Source: Tubiluchus corallicola
Lineage: Eukaryota; Priapulida; Priapulimorpha; Priapulimorphida; Tubiluchidae
Length of the DNA: 64,000 nucleotides
Direction of reading: 5' to 3'
Assembly (NCBI GenBank): GCA_030141605.1
Contig: JAQGDQ010000532.1
Location: 1 to 64,000 of the forward strand
Part shown: positions 2,373 to 48,984 of the stretch, one piece after another
How positions within the stretch are numbered: the first letter of the stretch is position 1
How the letters are laid out: the number at the start of each line of letters is the position of its first letter
The notes under the pieces: generated by a model
The model's database searches: none
What the model was told of the DNA's origin: nothing
The model's input: the letters and a program-made list of their open reading frames with translations, nothing else
Translations under genes and position numbers: made by a program

Positions 2373-2510
2373 ATGTCAGCGCCCGTGTCGTTTGTATTTG
2401 TAGTTTCCTTGTTTTGTTCAGCTTTGACTATTTTTAGTGTATTATGCAAGCAACCTTCCACAGAGATTTGTAATTTGCACCAGTGCGTTCTTAGAAGCAA
2501 TAATTTAAGG
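2373..2510 (+). CDS. IL17RD: IL17RD-like exon 1: signal peptide
   Basis: ATG at 2373 opens MSAPVSFVFVVSLFCSALTI and a short Cys-containing mature N-terminus. The donor is AGG|GTAAGT, phase 0. The frame is open upstream to at least 1998, with an in-frame ATG near 2067, but only the 2373 start places a hydrophobic signal peptide at the N-terminus, so I chose it. Confidence 0.8.
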
Positions 2511-5500
2511 GTAAGTAATTGCTTTATGTTAATTGTTTATTAAAAATGAAGATTACATGATTTTTTCTCACTACAGCTATTTCACGCACTTTATTTAATA
2601 AAAATAAATTTTTATACAATTGCTGTTATTAATCTGCCTTTCTATTTTTTCCTTGCAGATTGGACATGAATCAGAATGTCGTATAGAAGTCATGAATTTT
2701 ACTGGTAGGCCCTTAGAGATTATAAGCTTTACATCACATGAAGAAAAATAAAATTTAATATCTTGCCAAATTGACCTTATGCTTTTGTAAATATTTTGAC
2801 TTCTGAAGCATTGCATTTGTGAAGGCATTTAGTTGCCTATCTGAGACCATTTATTTGCTTTTTGAGGTCATTAATATATCTAAAAAGGTTTAAATTTGGT
2901 ACACTAACAACTGTTTCTGATAAATTGTACCAGTGATGCACTACAAGATTCAACAAGAATGTGTTTCTACAGTAGTTCTTGCATAAAGCTTATACGATTT
3001 CTTAAGTACAATCTTGCTTAAAGGAACACAGCTTGTCTCTATTCAAATGTTTTGTACAAGTTAGCTTTTTCACTTCTTTGTTTGAGTAAACATATCTCTG
3101 ATACAAATTGGTTGTATAATATTATAGCTGTAGATAACTTTCTGCACATTGTAATGCCAAAAATTGATGACGGAGGCCATACTACACTAGAATATTCCAG
3201 CAAAGGTTGCATGTAGAAATTATAAAAACTTACCTATCTCTTTTAAATTGCAACTGATAAACATCTCTTAATAATCTGATTTGGTTTCTTTCTGCCCTTA
3301 AAATATTAAATGCTATACACAGTTGCTCTGTGTATCTGAGTATGTGTGTTATAATATAGGTTCTTAATGGTGTATTTGGGTGCAGGTGATGCAGTCATTT
3401 ACTAGCCATCACGCCTATTTGCCCGAGGAATTTTGTGTTATACTATAACCACAGGAATTGCACTACTATAATGTAGCTATTACGAATAATACGTTCCGTA
3501 GTACTGGACCGATAGCGCTGTAGAGTTTGGTAGTTGCTTTCTTGTGAATTCTTATGGGTTCAATTCTATATATATATATAGAATATATATATATATATAG
3601 GGGCAAGGAAGTTTTCTTTCTAACTGATATTATACTTGGTATTTCTTAACAAACTACTACATATAATGATCCTAATTACTGAATAATTGTATTGTTTTGT
3701 TTAGATTTAATTATCTAACTTTATTATTTTTTGTTTTCAGTTCTTTTTGGATAATTTGTATCATTTATACTGTTTTTTATTATTTTTTTCTTATTTGTTT
3801 TTGTTATCTGCAGCATCACCGTTAATTTTGAATATAGTAATCTATTTGTAAGAAAGCGCAGGAAACTAGATGACCCTATGGTCCTTCCCTGCCCTGCTCC
3901 ATGATTATAATTACTTAATATTTGAAAAAACTTTTGATGTGAAACTAATTGGAGAAAATAAATGTTCTATGTCTATGTATTACACACAAGTTGTCGCACA
4001 CTTTTCAAAATAAAGTTATTTGGTTGGAAATCAATTTTGTTGTGACATTAACAAACTAGTCGCTGAATAAACATGGAGAATTTTTTCTACATTTCCATTT
4101 CCTATCAGCAGTAAAAGGCTAATACGCATTAAATATGTTCCAAGCTCTAAGCTTTCAAAGTTACAGGAATGTTAAGAAACTTTTTAACCTAGAACTTTGT
4201 CTATATTATATTATATAATATTACATTACATTAAAACTTTAACAGTAATAATAATAATAATTTCGTTTAGGTCCAGGGATGACACCTTAAGTAACACAAT
4301 ACTTCCAACATTGTCCCAATTATTATTACCCGCATGTTACTCTAATAAAACTGTGTGTTTGGCCAAAGAACCAGCGGTACCATTGTTTAAGTCTGTATGA
4401 CTAGTTTGGTAGTTAAACCTATGACCTCCTGATTGTGAATAGCCATGTTCCTTCTGTCGGTGCATGTGCATAGAGATATGTATAGGCTAGCACATTTTAA
4501 ATGAGCCTATTAACTTCGTTAACGGCATTAATTAGTTACTAACTTATTAGTAACAGTCACAATCGTAAAACTGTCATTTACAAACTGCTGAGCAAATATT
4601 GACCAAGTTTGTAGAACTTTACAAGATTTTTCTTATTCTAATTCTACAGGACAATGTTCTGACTTAAATTGGTTTCCGGGAGTGAACGCAAGCGAGTCTG
4701 TTCCTACGCCACTTGCTGATGTGTTTCTGTATAGCTACTGTTACACTTCCGACAACTCATCTGACGAGACCTGTCAGGGAGATGGAAGCTTAGTCAGTGG
4801 GATTGGTATGAATGTCAGTTTCGTGGTTATGGATCCAGGTAAGAATTTTGATCTTGTCCTTTTCGTAGAGCAAGCAATTTCTGTTTTTACAATGCAGTAA
4901 CTTTTTTATAAACATTTTTTCCATCACCTTTTGTATACAGAACAAAACTGATTAACATACCTTGGGAATTAGTAAGTACTCTATTATAGAGTTGAGACAT
5001 TCATGATTAGATATAGATACCTATGTTTTAGTAATGACAGTGCATCAAATGCAAAATGTTAAATTAACTTTTACTGAATTGGCTTGAAGCTTTTATAAAT
5101 TCCTGCATTAAATCAGAAATAGTCAAAATTGAAAAGTGAGTTACCGTGTAATAAAGTGTGGATTTTAGTTTCAATGTTTAATTCATTAATATTAACTGGG
5201 AGAAAGTTTGAATTCTACAGATTAAAGAAACTGTCATTTCTGTCCTAAACTGACAGGTTAAATAGAGGACATGTTAAATACAGTAGCCTGTCCTCCTGCC
5301 TCCTTTAGAAACCCCTTTTGGACCCCTTTTTCTTCTTAACATTATTTTTAATAACAAGTTTTTTGTTCTTCCCAAAGCAAGTTCTAGTTCAGTTTTTTGA
5401 CACTTTTCTGATGATAAACCATTCAGGAGTTCAGGGCATTACGTGACGGCATGATACTCTTGTCGTATGCTATTCTTGTTTCTTTGTTTTTGTTTTTACT

Positions 5501-8500
5501 TGAAACAAGATTTCTTCAACATTTCATTATGAAAAAGTTAGTCTCACTTTTTTATGCTATAGTTCGCTTACTGTATGCCATTTAGTGTTTCTTGTGGGTT
5601 TGCGTACTGCAATGATTGAAAAAATTTGCTATTTAGACTTTGATTTCATCTTACATTTTTTGTACAATTGTCATTTTTATTTGTTTTGTAGACACCACTG
5701 CCGTTCTTTTGAAATTCTGGAACATAGATGGCGACACCCGATATCAAGGTTCTGGTAGGGAATGCTTTCTATTTGACATCCGGAACCAATCAAAGCATGA
5801 ACTTGCCCAAGGACCTCCGGTTAGTGTTTGATTTTATTTTAGCAGTCAACATTGCAACGATTGATTTATCATTTTTTGCTCTTTCAGAGCAAAACTAAAA
5901 CTATGTCTAACGTACAGCGAGACATTTAACCCAAGTCGGCAGGAAATAATATTCTCTAAACTAACAAATAGTATCTAGTTTATTAAAACAATCTAGAAAC
6001 AATTTACACTTGGCAAACATAAGTAAAGAAAAGCTGGCGACAAAATGTGAAATTCAAGTTTACTGTTTATTTCCAAGTAAAACATACCTTAATAATTCAA
6101 CCTGGGTCATTACAGCTTAAATTTTAAAAATGTGTGCACAAAAAACAAGTGCTGTACCTCTCAATTCAGACGTGTTCATTTGTGACGTAGTGCACACCTT
6201 CGAGAGCTCATGCGTGAGCACAGTGGTAAATTTGAACTTTGCCGAATTTTAGTATATCACACTGAATCTCGTAGATTAGCATTATACTTCAATTTTCGCT
6301 TTTGCAACACGCTCATGGAATGTTTTTGCTGTTGAAAATTATGTTCATTTGTGATGACATCAATAGTTGGCTCACCTGCCGTTAATTATATTATCATTTT
6401 ATCTATTATATAATTATCAGAAATGATTGCAGTATTGGTGGTGTTAAACTGTGCTCTTTTTACCATACTTCAGAAGGGGAAGGATATGAAAAATCATCCT
6501 GCATTCCTTAAAATCTGTTACAGACTTTGTTATGCATTAATTTCTTTTACATTATATTATCACTATGGCTATAAATATTATAGCTATCTTCATTGTTCTT
6601 TTAATTTTTTTATTTTAGTTTTACTTTTGGTATGATTGTTACAATAATTTGATGGCTAACGCTACGTACGGAGTAGAGCTCACACAACTTCCCGGAAATG
6701 TTCCTGTCGTTTACCAAATAACCCTTCCCAGTGCTGAAAGGATATGTAAGTTCAAATAGAAAAAGCAGTAAAACATGCAAGTCAAATGGTAAATATGTGC
6801 AGTTACAGTTTCACTCATTGTAACTTCTCATGCTGAGTTCTAAAGTTAGGGGGAGCAGGCACATTAAAAAAGGTGCCATGACGCCTGAATCAATTATATG
6901 TTTGTCTAGGCCACAACAGACAGTATCAGCGACGCTGTGTGTGACAAGAATATATTATGGTAATTAGATTTGCAACAATTTGATCAGTTCAGTCAGTTAA
7001 CATTGACAAATGAGTTGCGTAAATGCGCGCTAATTTCAAAAACACTGGAAGGCAGGTTGATCAAATAAAGTAATATGGTAAATATGCTGTTGAAAAGATG
7101 CTAATTTTGAAAAATGTTATCCTGGGAGTGGTTGCTCCACTTGCTTCTTTATAAGCTATGCCACTGAACAAAGTCATAGGTTTTCCAGGTAGTCAAATGG
7201 ACTGTTATGCCCGCTTTTTCCCAAAATTGTTTAGAAAGTATGATAAAATGCCTGAGCTGGTTTCCATTAATGATTAGCTAACCTGTTCGATGGTGGATGT
7301 AGTAGCCAGTGGGCACAGTTAGATTGGGCCCACCCAGCTAATGATTTTGGCACTTCTGCTGGGCACCTTGTACAAACAATGTTCATTTAGCGATATTGCC
7401 GGAACTTTTGCTGTACAGGTGGATAAGGTTGAAGTTGACGAAGACGAAATTTTAGAAGATCCATCAAGTGAAGACAAAGTGATGTCTCAGAATTAAACAA
7501 TAAACTTTGTTAACCTATTAAAACAGTTGTCACAAGACTTAATAAACCACCCCATTTTATCCTTGCTGCCCTCATATATCTATGCCGACTTGCTGCAGAA
7601 CTTGGTTGTGTATTACTAGGAGTACTTTGATTATCAGTTGGTCATTCTATCTATCTTCGTAGTGCACTAAGTGTTTGAAGAAGTTCTATAACTCTTTGGA
7701 AAGAGCAGGAAGTGGGTTTCCGGAGGAGATGAATCTCTTTTATAAACGTCTCCACCGGAGCCTACAAGATGGGATAGTTCCAATGTGTCTTAATTCTTCT
7801 GTAGATCATCATTAAATTTAATAAGCCTTTTGCAGTTCCGGCAATTGATGTTGATTGTGAAAAGGTCAAAGGTTAAGTGTACCAGACAACGCATTTGTGT
7901 ACACTTGACAACGCCTCACAGCCCTAGATATTGTAATAGTAACAGTTTTTACAGCTAGCTAGTTAATTTTTTCCCAAGCAAGATCCTGTTAGTAAATCAC
8001 TCTATATCGCACAGACTGATGCATAATTAAGTAAAATCCATGTAAAACAACAACAAAATACAAGAACAACATACAACAATGATGCTGCAATTGTTTGACC
8101 CACATGTCACGTGACGGTTGTAGCTAGAACGCATTGCTAGGATTCACGTAACCTTTGACCTACAGCAACTGCGTGTACGCACAATGAAACTGTGAAAAGG
8201 CTTATTAGTAAGCATGTGCTTTTGTTTATGCACAAAACTAACCATGGAATTGTGATTGCATGCATTTAAAACGCATAGGCAATATTTTAAGCTAGTTAAA
8301 AAACAAGTTGTTTAGCACGCACAGGAATTGCTAACATTTTCGTATATATACATGTATTATACAGTTATATCAGTTATTAACACCCCACACTCACCTCAAT
8401 TTCAAATTCAGACACGTGAACAGTCTGGAGTAGCAATGCATGCCAATTGTTATGTCATTAATGCAGATATCATTCTGATATTACAAATATTGTGGCCAAT

Positions 8501-11500
8501 TTTAAAAAAAAAATTAAAATTTCATTAACGAAAAATGTATCACTTGTTTTGCTATTGTGTATGTTTCTGATTTTCAATTTTTGTTAAAAATGTGTGCATA
8601 TTGCAGGGTAAAAACATGGCAGAATAGTTTATCTACAATATGAGATAACTTAAGTTTAAAACAACTAGTGGTAAAAATGTTAATACTTGCATACAGTAGT
8701 TGAGTTTTGTTTCAAATTAAAAATTTTTGATGGAATTCCCAAAGGGGCAAATTGTCATGATATTTTGCCATACACACAATAGAATTGTCAATTATATTGA
8801 TTCAATATTATTGATGAAATTGTTCATTTACTATATGTGATTGTATATCTATTATTTTGCGCATTACTGTTTCGGTCTCAATATCGCTTGCAAATGCTTA
8901 ATTATATCTAATATTGTCAATTTTATTGTCAATATTGGGTATTACAGTGCGTCTGTGAGAGATATTAAGGTATGAAACCTGCCTGTGTATCCCTCTCAGA
9001 AACACATAAGAATTTTGTAATGGCAACATTGTTTGAAGAGGAGATGACATAATCAGGATATAATTTAAAAGATAAGTTTTTTGTTGCTTGCAAGAAAGTT
9101 ATCAGTGGTTTTGATTGACGTATTTCATGCACACAGACAACAAACATTCTATTGCGACTGCAGTGACAAATACATTGACCAAACTAGTAGACGCCTCATG
9201 TTCAGTGACCAATGACTTTTGTTTGAGGCTTATTCACATTTGCTCGTTTTTATATTTTTCAGTTCCAGATGAGGAAGAGTTGTACTTGTGGCAGCCTAGC
9301 ATAGCAGTTGAGTTGAGAACCGACGGGGTCATCGGAATCTTGTTTACCTATCATCCAGATCTTCGTTGTTACAATGTGGATTTGAAACGTACTGATGGTG
9401 CTGATGTATGTGGATCTCAGGTTTCACAGATTGTAAAGATTCCGTTACAGAAAGAGGTGGTGCTAGCAGCGGAATTTCAACATGTACCTCCTGGGGAGTA
9501 TTTTGTTCAGGTATGATTAATTTCAAGTCTAATTAATCTGGTTTTTTTTGATGAGTTTTACTCTCACATTAACTTACTTAGATTTGTTAATGGCTTGTAA
9601 AGTTGCAGTCAATCTTGGATATAAGGGGCACCTCAAGACTGGAAAAAATCGTCCCTTATATCCGATGTCCCTTATGGCCGAAGTTGAGTCAGACCGAGGG
9701 TGTATCCAGACCTGTACCTTTCTGTACTTTTACCCATATTTTTATGGATTATTGCTACACATTCAGTGCAAATGGTATGTAGGAAGCTCCTTCAGTGATG
9801 CGAGATGTATGTGACCGTGGAAACCGAGCTCTTCGAAGGCCGAGTTTGGAAAAAATTGATGTTAAAAATCGATCAATTTCGTTTTCATCATAGGGTCCCT
9901 TATATGCGAGGTAATTTAACCGGATTTCCATTACGCGGGACCTGAAGATATCATCCCTTATAACCGAAAGTCCCTTATATCCGAGTACCTTATATACGAA
10001 GATTTTTACATAGGAAAAAAATTACGAAAAATCGGGACTGGTGGTCCCTTATAAGCGAGTACCTTATACCTGAGGTTGACTGTGTTTCAAAAATGTTTGT
10101 ATTACTGTTTAGTTTCTGTTTACACATCATATAAGTGAGTTTGAATTCGTGGATTATTGCATGCTGTTGCGGTGACATTCATATTCACTGTACAATGCTT
10201 GTGTAACCATCCGAGTTACATTGGTTAAAGTACTAGCAGCTATCAATTGCAATACATATAAACAATCTTAAAGTGGAAGAAAACCCTCCACTTACATAAA
10301 GCTTGAAAAACTTGTCTTGAAATTTTATAATACTTGCACAGGGGCATATTAACCAATAGGCTAACTATTCTATAGCCTAGAGCACCAAAGTTTGAGGTCA
10401 TCACATTTTAGAAAAAATTCTTATTCTCCTCAGAAAATCTGTATCATATTCATATTCATGTAAAGGTCGCATTTTACAACACAGCACAGGCAGTTACTGA
10501 AAGTAGTTTTTACATAAATGCAACATAACGTACAGGTGCAAGGTATTACGCAACAAGCTGTTGAGCAGACTGTTTCAATGTAAGCACTATACAAATACAT
10601 GTAATTAATAATGACCACATAAAAATTAGATTAATAGTGTTTCTAAAACACCACAAGTAATTGTTCAATCTCCTCATTAACAACCATAAATTCACAATAG
10701 AGATATGCGGGATAGGACTGGTCACTTTCCATAATATTCTTTTAGTGTTAGAATTAATATTTTTAATATATTTTTATACATTTTGTGACTTTTTATGCAA
10801 AATTCGTCAAATCTATACATTACTATACAATACGTACTACGCATGTGCAAAAATACTTTAGACGGAGTGCCGCAAAAACCCGCTAAACAGCGAAAATACC
10901 GCGATAAACGAACCGTGAAGTAGCGAGGGAACACTGTACAACGAATTGGAATTTTTGGTGATCAGTTTGGAACAAACAGTTCATTATCAAGGTAACTAAA
11001 ACAAAAAAATTACCAGAAATTACAAACAACATCGAACAACAACAAGGTAAATTGTTAAATTATTATATAATTATAATCATATGTTATATAATATATCATT
11101 TGGCTGTCTAACTGGTATATTGTACTTCGGTGTTGTTTCTAAATTCTGGCAGTTTTTTTGTCCTAGATGCCTTGAGAATGAACCGTTTGTTCGAAACCGG
11201 TCGCTAATAAATTCAATTTTGATGTATGCATGTAGTATGTAGTAGTATGTAGGTGATACAAAGTAAACAATTTCAAGTTAAGGATTTCGTTACCCTGTAA
11301 TTTGTTGAACATTTAATGTTGTGAATTCCTGTTTATTTTCTGAATTTATAAGCCAAATTAAAGCCGTGTTTAGGAAAAAATTTCAAATTTTTAATGTATT
11401 TTAATTTATTATTTATTAATTACAGATCAGTGCATCTGATGAAGTTGATTGCAAAGATTTCTTAACTCTCTTCACAGCTTCATATCCATTTAATGTTTCT

Positions 11501-14500
11501 GGTGGCCCCGTGTGTCCATCTAATACAACCAAACTGGGTAATTTTGTATAATTTTAGCTGACAATTAGCTGCATAACATAAAAATTAAGTGACATTTTAC
11601 TTCCTCTCGGGGGGGGGGGGGGGTGTTGCATGGAAGTTTGATCAAGCTGTAACATTATTCATGAATGTAAAGAAAATTTGAAGAACGCAGTGATCCAGTT
11701 TGAAACTTAATTAATAATTGTCATTTGCCTGTACATTTGGAAATTTTTTGCATGAGATGTAAGTTAGTTGTCAACCTTGGTGACTTTGTATAGTTTACAA
11801 ATTCTGTGTATTTTTTCTAAGTAATTATACTTTATGTAAGTTTACATATTGGTGTTTGAATTGTTTTCACATTTCTGCATTATTTCTACAAAAACTAGCA
11901 CTTCATTTACAGCATAGTTAAGTTATAGTTTTAGTTAAAGTTTCTAAATAATGGAATAAATGAAAATTGCAATTTTTTGCAATCATCCAGGAACCTTTTT
12001 GATCATCATGTGCTTAACTTAATCCAAATTTAGCTTTCCAACAAATTCAGTTATTCCAAGTGTTGTCATACTGTGGTAATTATTAGTTTAGACCCTACAG
12101 AAATTCCTTGTAATTAATTAATTGCAATATTAATTTCATAATTTATTGATAATCTTGAAAACAAGAATATGAACAATCATTCTTACCTACTTATTGTTCA
12201 AGGTCTTTCAGTGATGACAAAAAATAATCTAATTCGAAATTATTCTGTTTCGAGTAAACTAAACTTGGTGATCTGTTGTTGATTTAATGCAGATCAACCG
12301 TGATTACAATGCCCTAAGTGATTTGTTGTTATAAGGTTTATAATCAGAAGGTTCTTGGTTCAAATACAGCACCAATTTAAACTTTTTCCTGTCTGTTTAT
12401 TTTGAATGATTTTATTAATGGTAGGTTCATTCCATCATTAATTGTTTAACATGAAACTAGGTTTTCAAATATATGATGTATGTAATATTTAAAACTATTA
12501 TAAATTGTGCATTTTTTAGGTTTAGATGTAAAACAGTTGATAGCCCTGGTACTTGGTGTAATCGCTGGAGGCGGCCTGATATTTGTGGTGTTTTTGTACT
12601 TTTGTTGGTACAAACGACGTAAACATGGTAAATTTTCAGTATTTTCGCAGTACTTCCTATACTATGAAAAGGCTGTTTTTACTCTCATATTTGTGGTGTC
12701 TTTGTACTTTTATTGGTACAAACGACGTAAACATGGTAAATTTTCAGTAATTTCGCAGTACTTCCTATACTATGAAAAGGCTGTTTATATTCTCATATTT
12801 GTGGTATTTTTGTACTTTTGTTGGTACACACGACGTAAACATGGTAAATTTTCAGTATTTTCTCAGTACTTCCTATACTATGAAAAGGCTGTTTATAGCC
12901 TTGTATTTGTGGTGTTTTTGTACTTTTGTTGGTACAAATAACGTAAACATGGTAAATTTTCAGTATTTTTGTTGGTACAAACGACGTAAACATGGTAAAT
13001 TTTCAGTATTTTCTCAGTACTTCCTATACTATGAAAAGGCTGTTTATATCCATCATGGGTTTGATCCCATAAATTAAAAACTGCATTTTTTATTGGATGC
13101 AGTCAATGCAATGCTCACATAACCAGTGCCAGGCAGTGCCATACTAGTGCTTGCAACCCCTCCATTTGTCCCCTCCTTTAGCTTCACCACTATTGCCTAG
13201 AAAGGGGTTGATATTAGTCTACAAAATTTGTGTAGTAGTCAGTTTGCCTTTAATTACTCGGACTCTTGAGGTTCTTGAAGGACATTGAAAAATCTTTCAA
13301 GATCTTCACTATATCCAATGGCTGTCAGCTGATGAATTCTGAGAGGAATGGAAGCTACTGAAAAAATAAAGCATTTTTGAGATTTATGGGCATTTTGACT
13401 TCTTTTTTATGGTTAAACCTATATTGAGGCTGATGCAGGATTTTTTTCCGTTTGACATTTCTTCCGAAAAATCAGTCAAAATAAAGTAAAAAATTTGCCT
13501 TTCTACTTAATTCTACTTTGGAATGACATAAATGATGAATTAAAAACTGTTCAACCAATTCAAAAATTTAAAAAGAAATACAGAGCAATGATTCTCAACA
13601 AGTACAACACTTCCTAATATCCCACACCTACTGCAGCAGTCATACCACAATCCTGGTACAGATTATGCAAAACAAGGCATCATTGATAAATCTTTAGAGC
13701 TGATGTCAACATAGCACAATCTATTATCTTTCTTCCTACCATTTCCACTAACACATCCTTCTACCCTTCCTGTGTGATCTAATCTTTCTCCCAGTTCTTT
13801 TTTTTGTTCACTCATCCATTCTTTTTTTATCGGGTTCACATGACGGTTGGCTTATACAAGCCTTTGCTTCTCTAGCCCACTACAGTACAATTATTCTTTT
13901 ATGATAACGATAGTGTATGAAACATAAAAATTTAATACAGTAGATGTAATAATTTTGATGTCACTGTGTGCTTAATGTCATTATATTGTACTGAATGTGA
14001 TAATAATAATAAAAAAAATTATATATCTATTGTGTGTGCTTGTAAGGTTTTCATTTTGCTTTAAGGTTATAGTCGAAATTTCGATGCTACGCTAGAGATC
14101 AAAGTGCCTCGAGTGTTCATAGCTTATTCGTATGATCACACATGTCACGCAGAAGCTGTAGAAAAATTTGCTTCATACTTGAAGAAGCATTGCTATTGTC
14201 AGGTATGTTTGTAGTATGGCACTGTTGCATCTGCATTTCTACATTGTCTTTTCATTTTGTTATTGTCAAGAGTATTAGTAGTATGGCTGTGTCATGTCTA
14301 CGCATCCACAATCATGTTTCAGTTTTATTCTTGTTTGGGGTGTGTGTGTGTGACTTTGCATTATTTTTTGTTTGTTGTTGTTTTCAAGAGTATGAGTAGT
14401 ATGGCTTTTTCAGACCTATGCCTCAACACATTCCAGTTTTCTTATTGTCAACAGTGTTAGTAGTATAGCTTATTTGTATGTATGCCTGTGCATCATTTTT

Positions 14501-17500
14501 TAGTCTTGTTATTCTAGTGGGTGTTAGTAGTTTGGCTCTGTAATATCTGTGTCTCCATATAGCCTGTCAGTTTTGTTAATGCCAGCAGTGTTAGTAGTAT
14601 GGCTTGTTTGTATGTATGCCTCTGCATCATTTTTCAGTCTTGTTATTCTGGTGGGTGTTAGTAGTGTGGCTCTTTTATATCTGTGTCTCCATATAGCCTG
14701 TCAGTTTTGTTATTGCCAGCAGTATTAGTAGTATGGCTTGTGGGTATATGTGCATCTGGATCATCTTTCAGTCTTGTTGTTCTAGAGGGTGTTAGTAGTG
14801 TGCTCTTTCATATCTGTGTCTCCATATAGCCTGTCAGTTTTGTTATTGCCAGCAGTATTAGTAGTATGACGCGTTAGTATGTGTATTTCTGTGCCATTCC
14901 TTTTACTAAGTTTGTGACTTTACAGTTTTGTGACACAATTGTTAAATTGTACTAATTATTGATTTTAGGTGCTACTAGATCAATGGCAGAAAACAGAACA
15001 ATGCGAGAACCCCATTGTTTGGCAGAAACAAAGTATTGCTGTAGCCGATTACATTGTTTGTGTTGCATCTATTGGCACTCACAGTGATCGGATACACCGT
15101 GATGCACAGGTAGAAAATGTTTGCAACTGTTAGTAACAAAATTACATTGCGACGATCATCCACGTAATGTAGAGAAAGATGACTCAACATGAATAAGTAA
15201 AAATTGGTGGAAGGTGTTTACAGTTAATTTTACTAGCTTAGCCCTAATCCTAACTTAAACCTACCCTAGTTTATGCACTTATACTTTGCTAAATACACGT
15301 GCTTGAAACAGGCCACCGCATATTAAAACCAACACTTATTAAATCTCTTATTGCTGGCTCTGTGATGATTTTGTTAAGCAGTGACTACTGTATTAGACTG
15401 TCAAAACTACTTGAATAATAGTAAGGAATTGTGGCTATCAGCGTAGTGGAGAACTTTGCTGAACTATTAATCTTACAAGGCCAATGAGTGATTTTTCTTT
15501 TTTTAGACTGCAGATCAAGTGAGCTGGAAGAACTTGTATGCTTTTGCTCTTGAACAGATCAGGGAGCTCATGCAAAATGAGTTAACGAAAGAAGAGCCGC
15601 GCCTGCAGAAATTTGTGAATGTTTTCTTTCCGTATTCACACAAAACGGTAAGACATGAATGCATTTTTAATGTACGGCAGCATTTCCAGGTTTCAGTGGA
15701 GTCTGCTTAATGGTGTTTGTACTATGACTAGATCCTGGCTCATTATCGAGGGTATTATATCTAAGGTGAGCTACTGAACCAGGAGAGGAGTTTAGCCTCC
15801 TCAGATACGTCCTCTCTGAGTGAGTTAAACAGCCAGGATTCCAGCTTAGTGCACCAGTCAGTGTCAAAAATTTTTTATTTTGCTCTGAAAAATGCGTACA
15901 CTTTCATATTCGCCCGAGGCATGCATTTTACAGCACATCACAAGTAATGTCTGAATCAGTTTTTATGTAAGTTTCATATAATAAATAGGTACAATTATTA
16001 CATAAAAAGTACTACACCACAAGCAGTTTCATAGGCTGCTTAAATATAAGTGCTATGCAAATAGATATTGTGTGTAATTAACAATAACCATGTAGATACT
16101 AGGTAATAGGGGTGAGCATTCTCTACCAGAAAGCGAATTCAAATAGAATCGAGTTTCGTTATTTCGAATCCGAAAATGAACTGAGTTTGAAAGATTTTCG
16201 AACCACTAGAGAAAAGTGGCCTCACAAAGATCATGCATATTACTTGATTTTGTTTTGCAGTAAAACCATTATTAGTTTATTAAAAATTTTGCGGCTAAAT
16301 TGTGGTAATTGCATGCCGTTTCAAACATTTTAATGGTAAAGAATGTATGTGGTTGAAGTGCTGAATTATTCGAATCTGTAATTTTAAGTTCCAATCGAAT
16401 TCGAACTAAAAAAACTTGTTCGAATTGAATTAGATCGATTCGAATGTTCAATGCTCACCCCTACTAAGTAATAGTGTTGCCTATATAAGTAGTTGTATAT
16501 TGTTCTTGATATATAAACAGCTATAAATCTGCATTAGAGATGGAGGAGATAGAACTGTCAGCCCAAAGCGCTGCAATGTCTTGATACGGCCATGCTTCTC
16601 TTTTTTGGCATCTTTTACTTTTTTGTGCACTTTCGTACAACTGCGAGTTGGATCCAGTATTCAACAGCAGGATGTATTCAACAAGATGTTTGTGGCAAGA
16701 CTGGAATCTGGTTCCCAGATGAGCCCACTGAACAATCTATTGTGCATCTGTTTAGCTTTAGTTGACTACATAGTATTACAATCTATTGTGCATCTGTCAA
16801 GCTTTAGTTGACTACATAGTATTACAATCTATTGTGTCTCTGTCAAGCTTTAGTTGACTACATATTATTACAATCTATTGTGCATCTGTCAAGCTTTAGT
16901 TGACTACATAGTATTACAATCTATTGTGTCTCTGTCAAGCTTTAGTTGACTACATAGTATTACAATCTATTGTGTCTCTGTCAAGCTTTAGTTGACTACA
17001 TAGTATTACAATCTATTGTGTCTCTGTCAAGCTTTAGTTGACTACATATTATTACAATCTATTGTGCATCTGTCAAGCTTTAGTTGACTACATAGTATTA
17101 CAATCTATTGTGTCTCTGTCAAGCTTTAGTTGACTACATAGTATTACAATCTATTGTGTCTCTGTCAAGCTTTAGTTGACTACATAGTATTACAATCTAT
17201 TGTGTCTTTGTCAAGCTTTAGTTGGCTACATAGTATTACAATCTATTGTGTCTCTGTCAAGCTTATCGCATAATATTTAATGTTGAATGCAGGATCTATT
17301 TTAGCCTAAAGAAAATATACAAAATTAAGTTTTCATTATTTTGTTAAAAATTTTACATTTTAGGATATCCCGCGGTCGCTAGAAACTCGTCAAACTTTTC
17401 CGTTAATGAGCAGTTTCTCCGCACTAAATCATCATCTTCACGATGTTGACGAGATAATTACTTTGCCGGGAGATGACTACGCCGAGTCAAACGATGGTCA

Positions 17501-18152
17501 ATCGCTGCTCGACTCCATTAACAAAACAAACTCTTACTATGACGAAAATCCATGTTGGTTTGAGGATTTCCTCCAGGAGATAAGGGAAGTTGCAAACGAT
17601 GAGGATGGTTCGTCTAATGAGAACAGTAAAATTAAAGGCAGTTCAAATGTAAAGAAAATGGATGATAGTTCAACGCGGGACGATGTGAACGATGATACTC
17701 AGCTTGTTCACTATGAGAACTGTCCCTGCCCGGACTGTCAGAAAAAGATGCAGCTAAAGTCAGCGAGCACAAATGATTGCAGTTTGACGGATTGTGGTGA
17801 TTCAGACGTTTCCTTACAGGGTGCTGATAATATGGCCTTAATTTCATTCACTAATCAAGCAACCCAGTCTTTCATGCAACAGCTTCAGCCATTGTATCAA
17901 ATGGATGGTTACCATAGCAGCAGTTACCCTAGAAACAATGCATTTGAAACTACTGGTTGCCATGGCAATGTTGACGGTTACCATAGATTTAGTACGCTTG
18001 AGCAATGTCGTCAGTACCTACCATTGTCTGTGGAAAATAATGTTCGTATTTTCAACTCTTTGCACAGTGATCCTTTTTTGCAGCTGCCAAGTAATTCGGA
18101 TGGTTACCTAGGTAACCAGTTTCAGCTAGAAAATTTGCAAATAAAGTCTTGA
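2373..18152 (+). CDS. IL17RD: IL-17 receptor D-like (SEF-like) SEFIR receptor, 12 coding exons
   Basis: Type I membrane receptor; in this family the cytoplasmic SEFIR domain makes homotypic contacts with other SEFIR proteins. Joined exons: 2373-2510, 2659-2704, 4650-4838, 5692-5819, 6619-6745, 9263-9510, 11426-11537, 12520-12627, 14066-14202, 14969-15109, 15507-15647, 17364-18152. All junctions are GT-AG and all phases agree, giving 2,304 nt and about 767 aa (vertebrate IL17RD is about 740). Residues 1-25 are a signal peptide. Residues about 26-330 are a Cys- and N-glycosylation-site-containing ectodomain of IL17R fibronectin-like type. Residues about 336-358 are a transmembrane helix followed by WYKRRKH. 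Residues about 376-505 are SEFIR (VFIAYSYDH, LLDQW, ADYIVCVAS). The tail is 506-767. The stretch after SEFIR (DIPRSLET...FPLM) resembles IL17RD more than IL17RA, which is why I favour that member. Orthology within the family is inference. Confidence 0.9.
2659..2704 (+). CDS. IL17RD: IL17RD-like exon 2 (46-bp microexon)
   Basis: Acceptor TTCCTTGCAG, donor ACTG|GTAGGC. Encodes IGHESECRIEVMNFTG, with one N-glycosylation sequon. Its phases (0 in, 1 out) join exons 1 and 3 without a gap, which is the main support for such a short exon. Confidence 0.8.
3566..3600. repeat. (TA)n palindromic microsatellite
   Basis: Two TATATA runs separated by GAATA form a near-perfect palindrome in intron 2 of the receptor gene. 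The rest of intron 2 (2705-4649) shows no coding signal. Confidence 0.6.
4650..4838 (+). CDS. IL17RD: IL17RD-like exon 3: membrane-distal ectodomain
   Basis: Acceptor ATTCTACAG, donor CCAG|GTAAGA. Encodes CSDLNWFPGV and a Cys-containing stretch with three N-x-S/T sites. Phase 1 in and 1 out. Confidence 0.85.
5692..5819 (+). CDS. IL17RD: IL17RD-like exon 4: ectodomain strand region
   Basis: Acceptor TTTTGTAG, donor CCG|GTTAGT. Encodes a beta-strand-rich piece (AVLLKFWNIDGDTRYQGSG) followed by CFLFDIRNQS. Phase 1 in, 0 out. Confidence 0.85.
6619..6745 (+). CDS. IL17RD: IL17RD-like exon 5: ectodomain
   Basis: Acceptor TTTTATTTTAG, donor ATAT|GTAAGT. Encodes FYFWYDCYNN, then ANATYGVELTQLPG and YQITLP, the alternating-strand pattern of the first IL17R fibronectin-like domain. 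Phase 0 in, 1 out. Confidence 0.85.
9263..9510 (+). CDS. IL17RD: IL17RD-like exon 6: second ectodomain unit
   Basis: The largest ectodomain exon. Acceptor TATATTTTTCAG, donor GTTCAG|GTATGA. Encodes LYLWQPSIAVEL, a central strand pair with two Cys (RCYNVDL, DVCGSQ) and the closing motif FQHVPPGEYFVQ typical of the second IL17R fibronectin-like domain. Phase 1 in, 0 out. Confidence 0.9.
9606..10082. mobile_element. MITE-like element with CAGTCAA ends
   Basis: Begins CAGTCAATCTTGGATATAAG and ends with the near-reverse complement (CTTATACC TGAGG TTGACTG). Inside, short motifs of the form TCCCTTATA-nn-CGA recur many times in both orientations. This fits a non-autonomous DNA transposon in intron 6. 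No clear target-site duplication was found, so the superfamily is open. Confidence 0.55.
10285..10622. repeat. Diverged interspersed repeat, copy 1
   Basis: Segments here recur elsewhere in the window. 10431-10622 matches 15895-16097 loosely (shared GCATTTTACA, GTTTTTA, AAGCA, AACAATAACCA-type blocks). 10290-10345 (ACATAAAGCTTGAAAAACT) matches about 25490-25535. It is an old dispersed family of unknown type in intron 6. Confidence 0.45.
10859..10938 (-). mobile_element. Solo end resembling a pogo/Tigger-like transposon
   Basis: On the - strand the segment starts TA-CAGTGTTCCCTCGCTAC and continues with CGCGG and GTTTAGCGGG-type motifs that are common in pogo-like TIRs. Only one end was found, so this is a fragment. 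The family assignment is inference from the motif. Confidence 0.4.
11426..11537 (+). CDS. IL17RD: IL17RD-like exon 7: juxtamembrane ectodomain
   Basis: Acceptor ATTAATTACAG, donor CTGG|GTAATT. Encodes a segment with two Cys (DEVDCKDF, GGPVCPSN) and two sequons just before the membrane. Phase 0 in, 1 out. Confidence 0.85.
11609..11623 (+). repeat. G15 homopolymer
   Basis: Fifteen consecutive G just after exon 7, in a 35% GC context. It could form G-quadruplex or triplex structures and is prone to length change. Confidence 0.8.
12520..12627 (+). CDS. IL17RD: IL17RD-like exon 8: transmembrane exon
   Basis: Acceptor CATTTTTTAG, donor CATG|GTAAAT. Encodes LIALVLGVIAGGGLIFVVFL followed by the basic stop-transfer WYKRRKH. 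The last 52 bp and the donor are the first unit of a 108-bp tandem array running to about 13,051, so three further in-frame or near-frame copies of this donor follow. Use of the first donor gives the standard one-helix receptor. Confidence 0.85.
12576..13051 (+). repeat. 108-bp tandem array duplicating the TM-exon end and its donor
   Basis: Copies begin near 12576, 12684, 12792 and 12900, and a shorter fifth unit starts about 12967. Each carries the FVVFLYFCWYKRRKH-coding end of exon 8, the donor CATG|GTAAAT (GT at 12628, 12736, 12844, 12952, 12995) and the following intron start. The unit is 36 codons, so the frame stays open through copies 2 and 3 and stops only in copy 4 (TAA near 12,940). 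Copies look about 95% identical, so the amplification is recent or homogenised. Confidence 0.9.
13513..14018 (+). mobile_element. 5'-truncated non-LTR retrotransposon 3' end
   Basis: 13513-13617 encodes LLWNDINDELK, FKKKYRAMIL and a stop, the usual C-terminus of many LINE ORF2 proteins. A 3' UTR of about 390 bp follows and ends in TAATAATAATAAAAAAAA. The 3' UTR is almost identical to 57104-57540, so this is a real family with at least two insertions. It sits in intron 8 of the receptor gene. Confidence 0.75.
14066..14202 (+). CDS. IL17RD: IL17RD-like exon 9: SEFIR start
   Basis: Acceptor GCTTTAAG, donor TGTCAG|GTATGT. Encodes VPRVFIAYSYDH, the first SEFIR strand and box 1, then a helix (AEAVEKFASYLKKHC). 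Phase 1 in, 0 out, matching exon 8 only if exon 8 ends in phase 1, as every copy of its donor does. Confidence 0.92.
14205..14890. repeat. Imperfect tandem repeat, about 134-bp unit
   Basis: Anchors AGCCTGTCAG recur at 14561, 14695 and 14828, and the motif TTAGTAGTATGGCT recurs every 60-70 bp from 14273 on. The array fills intron 9 and starts a few bases after the exon 9 donor. Short open frames inside it are artefacts of the repeat. Confidence 0.75.
14969..15109 (+). CDS. IL17RD: IL17RD-like exon 10: SEFIR core
   Basis: Acceptor TGATTTTAG, donor GCACAG|GTAGAA. Encodes VLLDQW (conserved strand/loop), PIVWQKQS and ADYIVCVAS, the standard SEFIR core. Exactly 47 codons, phase 0-0. Confidence 0.92.
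15507..15647 (+). CDS. IL17RD: IL17RD-like exon 11: SEFIR end
   Basis: Acceptor TTTTTTTAG, donor AAAACG|GTAAGA. Encodes a helix (YAFALEQIRELMQNEL) and the late SEFIR strand KFVNVFFPYS, which corresponds to the KFI.VYF.YS element of IL17RD. Phase 0-0. Confidence 0.9.
16107..16463. mobile_element. hAT-like MITE with TSD
   Basis: A 357-bp element with perfect 14-bp terminal inverted repeats (TAGGGGTGAGCATT / AATGCTCACCCCTA), AT-rich interior and many TTCGAAT-type motifs. The flanks are CTAGGTAA (16099-16106) and CTAAGTAA (16464-16471), a 7/8 matching 8-bp target duplication as expected for hAT transposition. No transposase remains. Located in intron 11. Confidence 0.85.
16733..17264. repeat. 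46-bp minisatellite, about 11.5 copies
   Basis: The unit starts CAATCTATTGTG and contains CAAGCTTTAGTTGACTACAT. Repeat starts fall at exact 46-bp steps from 16733 to 17239. Copies differ mainly at TGCATCT versus TGTCTCT and TAGTATT versus TATTATT. It ends about 100 bp before the receptor's last exon. Confidence 0.92.
17364..18152 (+). CDS. IL17RD: IL17RD-like exon 12: cytoplasmic tail and stop
   Basis: Acceptor TTACATTTTAG. The first 30 codons (DIPRSLET, FPLMSSF, HHLHDVDE) continue the SEFIR-proximal homology. The rest is an acidic, Ser/Asn-rich tail with a Cys pair motif CPCPDC and two copies of DGYH. Stop TGA at 18150-18152. No catalytic motif is visible; the tail probably acts as a docking region. 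Confidence 0.9.
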   Translation, partial: DIPRSLETRQTFPLMSSFSALNHHLHDVDEIITLPGDDYAESNDGQSLLDSINKTNSYYDENPCWFEDFLQEIREVANDEDGSSNENSKIKGSSNVKKMDDSSTRDDVNDDTQLVHYENCPCPDCQKKMQLKSASTNDCSLTDCGDSDVSLQGADNMALISFTNQATQSFMQQLQPLYQMDGYHSSSYPRNNAFETTGCHGNVDGYHRFSTLEQCRQYLPLSVENNVRIFNSLHSDPFLQLPSNSDGYLGNQFQLENLQIKS

Positions 18153-20762
18153 TTATTTTCGCCATTCCTGATTTTAGATTAGAATTTTTTGTACTTACGT
18201 TACGCAGTAGATTCACGTAGTAGAAAAATTTACAACTAGTTAACTGGCGACAGTGATGGTCAGCAGCGATAGTCCAAGTATTTTACTTGTATTTTATTTT
18301 TGTCATGTTGTAAATGTTGCTTTAACAAGCCATCAATGGTGTAGGGTCAGTAGTCACTACATTCATATGCAGTGAGAGGAGTGAATAAATAGAATAATTT
18401 GCCAGCTATGCTGATCGCTGCACCATCTGTAGTAAAGTTCAAATTCTTAATCGACAATTATTTTGTGCAAAAATATGGGGTTTCTATGAGTGCATTCACT
18501 TCATGAGAGCAAAAAAGCTATCATTATATTTGCGATAATGATGTTACAAAGATAATACGACATAAAAATAAATGGCTAGTGTGAAGTATAAAAGAAAATG
18601 GAAATTTTGAAATTCTTCTGTATTGTGAATGCACTGCATTAGCATTATGGTAAATAGTTTTTTATATTTAACAATAGCAACGTATCAATATGAACCATTA
18701 GTTATAAAACAGTCTATGTAGTGATCATAGCTTGAGGTGCCACTAGATTTACATTAATTCCTATGGAAGCCATGGCTTTGTTTAACGAGTGGCTAAAGAT
18801 CTAATTTTGCCTTGTTCTGTTTAAGCAAGATCTTACTGTAGATGTAGTGGTGTGATGCTAGATTACTTGTCTATTGATGATGCGCACACAGTGACATCTA
18901 ACGAGAATTACAGAAAAATGCTGCATTTGAACCTGTATTAATGTGCTTCATTGACTGTCCTATTCTATTGTATCAAGATCAAAGTTATTGCAAATTATTT
19001 TTAAAATAATTTTTGTACTTAGTGTAGTATATCGATAACATTATTACCTCATTATATATATAGAGATAAGTTTATAAGAATGAATTGTAATTATGTAAAT
19101 ATTGACTGATTAAAATTGTTGATTTTTTTAATTTAAGAATAAGAAATGATTCTGTAATGATTACTCATGAATAAGAGGATAGTTTTATCATGTGAAATTT
19201 AGTTAGATTATCCAACTTACTAAGAACATCACTTTGAGAACGAGTTATTCAAAAATAATTGTATTTTTGAAAGAAATAAACTATTTTTTAGTAAAAGTAT
19301 GGTTTAAACAACGTCTATACGAATATATCTCTAATATTTAGTGAAAATAGTAATCATCATTAATCTTGTTGGCTGTCTATTCACTGTGAGAAACGAAAGC
19401 AACCTTGACCTGTGACACCGAAACGACCTTTGACCTCTAGTCAAAAGGCATGGTTACAAACTTTCACTTGATACATTCACAAGCTGTAATGAATGCAGAC
19501 CCAACACTGTTGACATCATCCACCTCATTGAAACAATAAATAGGCATCAAAAAACATTTTGTGAACAACAGCCTCACAACAATAAGCTTCTTTATAGGTT
19601 ACTGTTCAAGCAAGTCGTCACATCTTATTCACTTCTGATAAGCACTTTTTTCACTGTTTAAAAGTCAAAGATCAACAAAAAAACCAAAGATGAATAAGTG
19701 TACGGCAGACAAAATTTTATTTATTGCCCTTATCGCACTTAAATAACTACAAAGAATTCATACTGGTGAATGTTTGACTAGGAAAGTCCAAGAGATTAGG
19801 CCTACAACGACTGTACCAATAGAAACAAGAAACAACATGAATTCTGTTTAAAATTTAGAAGAATTAATACATTCTTTTCCAAATTGCTTGAAGACTTTAA
19901 CCAGTAAGAAATGTAGATAATGATCGACTAGTCAGTAGATCCAAGGTCATTTTCTGGTCATTTATGTGCCACACCCTTTCATAAACATCTGCAAAATCTG
20001 GGGCCAGTAAAAATGTTAATACAACAGCTATTGCAGATAAGAAACTTTACTAAATATAAATGAAACGATATTATCATTTATTGTAGCATTCTTACTGTGG
20101 TTAAGAATGTTCATCTCATAACAAATTACTTGTATATGTTACAAGGGAAGTAAAAGTTTAATTTTTGCAGTGAGAGCATCTCTTTAACACACTGTTATGG
20201 TAAACCTGCAATGAGAATTGCAAGCTAGTCAAAAAGCACTCAAGCTCGTAACTTCGTCGAAGCTAATCAGAGGTCGATTTCATTTCGGCAAAGTAGCAAA
20301 GCCGTAACCAAAACGTACTCGAGTGCGTAAACATACGATAAATTAAATAAACATGAATATATATAAAATAGTATTTACAACATATTCATTGAATACATAT
20401 GAACTCATAGTGACGGAACGCAAATTTTCATACCTGCCAAGATGGAAGGACCACACGTCCGAGTTCTGCACGAGTTCTCTTCTCAGTGACGTACCACACT
20501 TAAATGCTTTGGAATTTCAAATAAGACGTTCATTTAAATTTGTTTATTGTTTTAACTCATAAAAACAGTGAAAGAACCGAAAAGATTAGTAGCAACAAGA
20601 AAAAACATTAACAATTTTGCTTAATTTAATAAATACTGTATTAGATTTTAGCTGACACACAGAAATGATAACCTATTTTGTACAAATGTAAATGGTTCTG
20701 GTATGTGATGTGTAGTGTAAAGGCAAAACTTATACAACATGCATGTTTAGTAATCAAAGCGG
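18153..20762. other. Convergent 3' UTR region between IL17RD-like and SRPK
   Basis: The two genes end tail-to-tail. On + the first poly(A) signals after the receptor stop are AATAAA at 18384-18389 and 18567-18572. On - the SRPK transcript has AATAAA (TTTATT on +) at 20543-20548, about 220 nt past its stop. The rest is AT-rich with no coding signal. Confidence 0.6.

Positions 20763-48984
<28,222 letters not shown>

What the first reader, a model, noticed from the sequence alone, without database searches (positions are those of the whole stretch)
12520..13051. In-frame tandem amplification of a receptor transmembrane exon with its splice donor
The end of the TM exon, its donor and the start of the intron are repeated about 4.5 times with a 108-bp (36-codon) period. 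The frame stays open through copies 2 and 3, and each copy has the identical donor CATG|GTAAAT in the phase that joins exon 9. Use of donor 2 or 3 would add a second or third hydrophobic segment plus the linker KFSVFSQYFLYYEKAV. Two helices would in principle place SEFIR on the other side of the membrane; three would restore it. Copy 4 gains a TAA just before its donor, so exactly three donors can be used. The array and frames are seen; use in splicing is inference.
Basis: partly seen in the sequence, partly recalled or inferred. Interest (0 to 1): 0.8.

Follow-up and report, generated by a model that had tools for sequence, protein, structure and literature searches.

The report
Minisatellite duplicating a receptor splice donor
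In an unnamed animal, a short DNA repeat covers the end of the membrane-spanning exon of an interleukin-17-receptor-like gene and copies its splice signal five times; this could lengthen or cut short the receptor, but such repeats are common in the sampled parts of this genome and nothing seen shows that the extra copies are used.

Summary
The array is real. Three full 108-bp copies start at 12579, and a fourth and fifth are fused by a 65-bp deletion. The donor CATG|GTAAAT occurs five times (12628, 12736, 12844, 12952, 12995), not three. The host gene holds up: 12 hand-drawn exons, 11 GT-AG introns, consistent phases, a 767-aa single-pass SEFIR receptor. Donors 1-3 give 767, 803 or 839 aa with SEFIR intact; donors 4 and 5 give 469 aa without SEFIR (an in-frame stop does not by itself block a donor). 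By a recalled scale the added segments could insert in a membrane. Nothing clearly indicates selection for use: copies show no clear excess of silent changes, an open in-frame unit has about a 9% chance, and minisatellites cover 4.8% of 174 kb sampled, including two more introns of this gene. A close precedent exists: in human ABCA7 a VNTR starts at an exon's donor, and retention of one unit is a reported isoform. Most likely this is a donor-straddling minisatellite with donor 1 dominant and at most minor use of later copies. Variable membrane-span isoforms or a SEFIR-less decoy remain possible but need RNA.

The parts
12520..12627 (+). Exon 8 (transmembrane exon, 108 bp), phase 1 in and out, encodes LDVKQLIALVLGVIAGGGLIFVVFLYFCWYKRRKHG with shared border codons
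   Evidence: GT-AG borders and phases fit exons 7 and 9; predicted insertion energy -2.83 kcal/mol with recalled parameters
12579..12686 (+). Repeat copy 1 (end of exon 8 + donor 12628 + start of intron 8)
12687..12794 (+). Repeat copy 2, donor 12736; frame open
12795..12902 (+). Repeat copy 3, donor 12844; frame open
12903..12969 (+). Repeat copy 4, cut short by a 65-bp deletion; TAA at 12939-12941; donor 12952 intact
   Evidence: deletion read by eye
12967..13051 (+). Repeat copy 5, lacking about its first 21 bases; donor 12995 (43 bp after donor 4)
2373..18152 (+). Host gene: 12 exons, 767-aa predicted single-pass SEFIR receptor
   Evidence: hand-drawn exon model, 11 of 11 introns GT-AG, frames consistent; Pfam SEFIR E 5.4e-23 at residues 381-530
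14066..14202 (+). Exon 9, start of the SEFIR domain; its acceptor could serve any of the five donors

Best explanation
A minisatellite arose by tandem duplication of a 108-bp piece that spans the 3' end of the transmembrane exon, its 5' splice site and the first part of intron 8 of an IL-17-receptor-like (SEFIR) gene. It grew to five copies and has begun to decay (65-bp deletion, stop codon in copy 4). The normal receptor is made by splicing from the first donor (12628) to exon 9. The extra donors are mostly passengers; some leaky use of donor 2 or 3 is likely and would add 36 or 72 in-frame residues. Shown: the array, the donors, and the reading frames of each donor's product. Strongly supported but not proven by RNA: the exon model. 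Inferred: which donor is used, and near-neutrality.
For: Minisatellites are common in what was sampled: arrays with period 20 or more and score 150 or more cover 4.8% of 174 kb, this array included; on the 6 loci from other contigs I add up about 2.3% of 60 kb, with such arrays in 3 of 6. At those rates 22-42% of genes with 11 introns would have a donor inside an array by chance, ignoring selection. Three of the gene's 11 introns hold such arrays (8, 9 and 11). Silent changes among changed codons: 0 of 5 (copy 1 v 2), 3 of 6 (1 v 3), 3 of 8 (2 v 3), no clear excess. A period divisible by 3 with an open intronic part has a chance of about 0.26 x 1/3 = 0.086. The other SEFIR receptor found in this genome has one strong TM segment. 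In human ABCA7, where a VNTR starts at the exon 18 donor, the paper calls splicing without retained units canonical and lists retention of one unit as an alternative event (passages).
Against: All five donors are identical over CATGGTAAAT, so no copy is disabled. The donor is weak (6 of 9 to consensus, the lowest score among the gene's 11 donors, shared with four others), so donor 1 has no intrinsic advantage. SRSF1 is reported to favour intron-proximal donors (passages), which would favour later copies. Comparable human arrays are not inert: ABCA7 VNTR length goes with lower expression and more skipping of the next exon, and CBS VNTR length with lower enzyme activity. Copy 3 leans silent (3 of 6 against copy 1). 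No RNA was available.
Confidence: 0.65

Rival explanations
1. Alternative use of donors 1, 2 and 3 makes receptors with one, two or three hydrophobic segments, changing or tuning SEFIR topology.
For: Frames open with intact C-termini of 767, 803 and 839 aa. Predicted insertion energies of the extra segments are -0.66 and -2.29 kcal/mol (parameters recalled).
Against: No clear excess of silent changes in copies 2 and 3. Both extra helices end in a basic KRRK or TRRK stretch, which disfavours placing that end outside. One strong TM in the other SEFIR receptor found. No RNA.
Confidence: 0.12
2. Intron-proximal donors 4 or 5 are used often; the TAA in copy 4 then gives a 469-aa receptor without SEFIR (a decoy) or a transcript removed by nonsense-mediated decay, or the array causes skipping of a neighbouring exon. 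In each case it lowers full-length receptor output.
For: Donors 4 and 5 are intact and give 469 aa. SRSF1 favours intron-proximal donors in other genes (passages). Longer ABCA7 arrays lower expression and raise skipping of the next exon (passages).
Against: Of the three ABCA7 events named in the passages read, one is retention of a single unit and none is retention of many. It would be costly for a receptor found once in the assembly. No RNA.
Confidence: 0.13
3. The repeats are becoming new introns: the donor of copy n splices to an AG of copy n+1 (for example 12628 to 12747, 120 bp, in frame), as in intron gain by tandem duplication.
For: Copies 1-3 each carry an AG at ...TTTTC(AG) and a more pyrimidine-rich one 11 bases later; copies 4 and 5 carry the first, and copy 5 both. 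Published intron gains by tandem duplication, including duplication of an intron-exon structure in potato (passages).
Against: Pyrimidine tracts are short; the array lies at an intron start, where the whole stretch can be removed anyway.
Confidence: 0.04
4. The array is an assembly artefact.
For: The assembly has 2344 contigs; reads were not available.
Against: Copies differ by private substitutions and a deletion, which a stuttered assembly would not be expected to produce. One locus in the assembly.
Confidence: 0.04

Closest known systems
Human ABCA7 intron 18 VNTR (PMC5954066, passages read)
   Same: A tandem array starts at an exon's donor, with the unit's first two bases (GT) serving as a donor; retention of one unit through a donor in the array is a reported isoform.
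   Different: 25-bp unit, so one retained unit shifts the frame; about 12 to 427 units between alleles; the array starts at the donor and does not repeat exon sequence.
[quoted passage not shown]
   Same: Repetition at an exon-intron boundary of a coding gene; 844ins68 shows strong preference between duplicated splice sites.
   Different: 31-bp unit, not divisible by 3, described as non-coding; 844ins68 concerns an intron-to-exon junction (the text says donor, the title of a cited paper says 3' splice site); neither encodes membrane segments.
[quoted passage not shown] ATP2A1; fission yeast 24-bp arrays)
   Same: Tandem duplication multiplies splice signals.
   Different: There a new intron is formed; here the simplest outcome is a longer exon or no change.
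IL-17 receptor-like SEFIR receptors
   Same: Hydrophobic N-terminus, one TM, SEFIR domain.
   Different: I know of no such array in others (recall; not searched gene by gene).

Membership tests
SEFIR-domain receptor (IL-17R-like) | SEFIR domain over the curated cut-off | tested here: met
   PF08357 E 5.4e-23, 82.4 bits v cut-off 23; best PDB match chain 9ot1_B, named IL-17 receptor B / IL-17 receptor A, E 2.3e-08; single IL-17RA and IL-17RB chains only E 0.022 and 0.024 (residues 1-551)
SEFIR-domain receptor (IL-17R-like) | Single TM between ectodomain and SEFIR | tested here: met
   One strong segment, -2.83 kcal/mol at residues 336-360; next best is the N-terminus, 0.33 (recalled parameters)
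SEFIR-domain receptor (IL-17R-like) | IL-17R fibronectin-III-like ectodomain | tested here: inconclusive
   No Pfam match in the ectodomain of this protein at E up to 1; the other SEFIR gene, on C989, has an IL17R_fnIII_D1 match below its cut-off, E 0.0012
Donor-containing VNTR/minisatellite (ABCA7 type) | Tandem array whose units carry the exon's donor | tested here: met
   5 identical donors in 5 copies
Donor-containing VNTR/minisatellite (ABCA7 type) | Copy number varies between individuals | not testable with these tools
   One assembly, one locus
Donor-containing VNTR/minisatellite (ABCA7 type) | Alternative use of donors in RNA | not testable with these tools
   No RNA data
Intron gain by tandem duplication | A new intron removed between copies | not testable with these tools
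   Candidate AGs exist, no RNA

The most novel reading that the evidence does not exclude
A copy-number-variable donor array sets how many membrane segments an IL-17-like receptor has, and whether it keeps its SEFIR domain, so that one minisatellite yields signalling receptors of differing topology and a SEFIR-less decoy from a single gene.
Probability: 0.07. Interest if true: 0.75.

Novelty: new member of a known kind. Interest (0 to 1): 0.32.

Why it matters
If later donors are used, a tandem repeat would directly control the number of transmembrane segments of an immune-type receptor, for which I know no precedent (recall). Even if unused, it is a natural experiment on choice among five identical 5' splice sites, each giving a transcript that can be told apart.

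Tried and rejected
Retrocopy, haplotype or paralogue of the array: a DNA search of the 343.5-Mb assembly found only this locus. A protein search with residues 1-551 of 767 found 14 matches at E up to 0.1, all on C90 inside the gene. A SEFIR family search found one further gene, on C989; it works exon by exon and found only one exon of the present gene, so SEFIR genes split over several exons may have been missed. RNA structure as the reason for the array: z -1.44, 8 of 100 shuffles fold as well, so not supported. A second array that repeats donor 9: only 10-15-bp matches between the end of exon 9 with the start of intron 9 and the rest of that intron, not supported. Literature: CBS was recalled first and then looked for. 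Four searches used minisatellite/VNTR or duplicated-donor wording, two competing donors, one intron gain, one SEFIR receptors. Searches listed nothing; two searches gave the CBS and ABCA7 papers.

Full report
Observation. The tandem array is real. TRF reports 12579-12969 with period 108, 3.6 copies and 93% matches. In register, copies 1-3 differ from each other at 5, 7 and 9 of 108 sites; copy 4 stays alike for 67 bases, with 3 differences, and then breaks. Reading those calls by eye, copies 4 and 5 are joined by a 65-bp deletion at a TTTT stretch, so the donors are 12628, 12736, 12844, 12952 and 12995: five, not three. Copy 4 has CGA to TAA at 12939-12941, with 10 bases between it and its donor.

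Gene. I drew 12 exons by hand from 2373 to 18152. All 11 introns are GT-AG and the frames join to give 767 aa. Pfam finds SEFIR at 381-530 (E 5.4e-23). phmmer with residues 1-551 finds a PDB chain named IL-17 receptor B / IL-17 receptor A at E 2.3e-08; single IL-17RA and IL-17RB chains are only at 0.022 and 0.024. No Pfam domain was found in the ectodomain. The TM exon is 12520-12627, also 108 bp; it begins 59 bases before the repeat unit, so its equal length to the period looks like coincidence. The array occurs once in the 343.5-Mb assembly. One other SEFIR gene was found, on contig C989, a 672-aa open frame with one strong TM. The organism was not identified.

Consequences of each donor. 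Donor 1: 767 aa. Donor 2: 803 aa. Donor 3: 839 aa. All three keep the normal C-terminus. Donors 4 and 5: 469 aa, ending in copy 4 without SEFIR; the remaining exon junctions downstream would make such transcripts candidates for nonsense-mediated decay (inference). By a recalled insertion scale the extra segments score -0.66 (copy 2), -2.29 (copy 3) and, in the truncated form, -0.64 (copy 4), against -2.83 for the true TM. The controls scored -1.4 (glycophorin A) and -2.8 to +2.9 (seven bacteriorhodopsin segments, several positive although the protein is a membrane protein), so the scale is a guide only. The segments could insert. But a basic KRRK or TRRK stretch follows the helices of copies 1-3, so a clean inversion of SEFIR is uncertain.

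Is it more than chance? The array as such is far beyond chance. Its place at a donor is not surprising here: arrays with period 20 or more and score 150 or more cover 4.8% of the 174 kb examined (window, this array included, plus 11 loci, 5 of them on the same contig). On the 6 loci from other contigs I add up about 2.3%, with arrays in 3 of 6. With 11 donors per gene that gives 22-42% of such genes with a donor inside an array, if selection is ignored. Introns 9 (14434-14882) and 11 (16732-17264) of this gene also hold arrays. The open frame adds little: 26% of 10,065 overlapping 60-base stretches from introns 1-8 of this gene are open in a given frame, times 1/3 for the period, about 9%.

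Selection. Silent changes among changed codons are 0 of 5 (copy 1 v 2), 3 of 6 (1 v 3) and 3 of 8 (2 v 3). Random change would give roughly a quarter silent (general knowledge), so there is no clear excess, though copy 3 leans that way; the numbers are small and the pairs not independent. The unchanged donors are compatible with chance given about a dozen changed sites across the unit (my estimate). The RNA fold is not unusual (z -1.44). The donor matches 6 of 9 consensus bases, the lowest score among the gene's 11 donors and shared with four others. Two more GTs with the same score lie in exon 8 (12549) and late in intron 8 (14042), so this score alone does not mark a used donor.

Precedents. 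In human ABCA7 a 25-bp VNTR starts with the exon 18 donor, and retention of exactly one unit is a reported isoform, out of frame there; that event did not change with VNTR length, whereas skipping of exon 19 rose and expression fell with length (passages). In CBS a 31-bp VNTR lies at the exon 13/intron 13 boundary and more units go with lower activity (passages), and a duplicated intron 7/exon 8 junction shows strong choice between the copies (passages). Tandem duplications can also create introns (passages). SRSF1 and hnRNP A1 are reported to push choice toward intron-proximal and intron-distal donors respectively (passages), so position alone does not settle which donor wins.

Verdict. The most likely reading is a decaying, donor-straddling minisatellite with donor 1 dominant and perhaps minor +36 or +72 isoforms. 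Multi-TM isoforms, a decoy, or lowered output remain possible but rest on no evidence of use in this animal.

Noticed in passing
27638-28568: 30-bp unit repeated 31 times (95% matches); each of the three + strand frames has a long open stretch there, one reading [10 protein letters not shown] repeats.
   Followed up: partly
16732-17264: 46-bp minisatellite, 11.6 copies, in intron 11 of the same receptor gene shortly before its acceptor.
   Followed up: no
14434-14882: 134-bp (67-bp half-unit) array filling much of intron 9 of the same gene.
   Followed up: partly
13456-13617: Intron 8 carries an open stretch resembling the C-terminal tail of a non-LTR reverse transcriptase (resemblance recalled, not searched).
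   Followed up: no
L027:157-2175: Second SEFIR receptor found in the genome (contig C989), in one 672-aa open frame, with one strong TM and a below-cut-off IL17R_fnIII_D1 match.
   Followed up: partly
20641-21886, minus strand: Open stretches that look like an SR-protein kinase gene on the other strand downstream (resemblance recalled, not searched).
   Followed up: no
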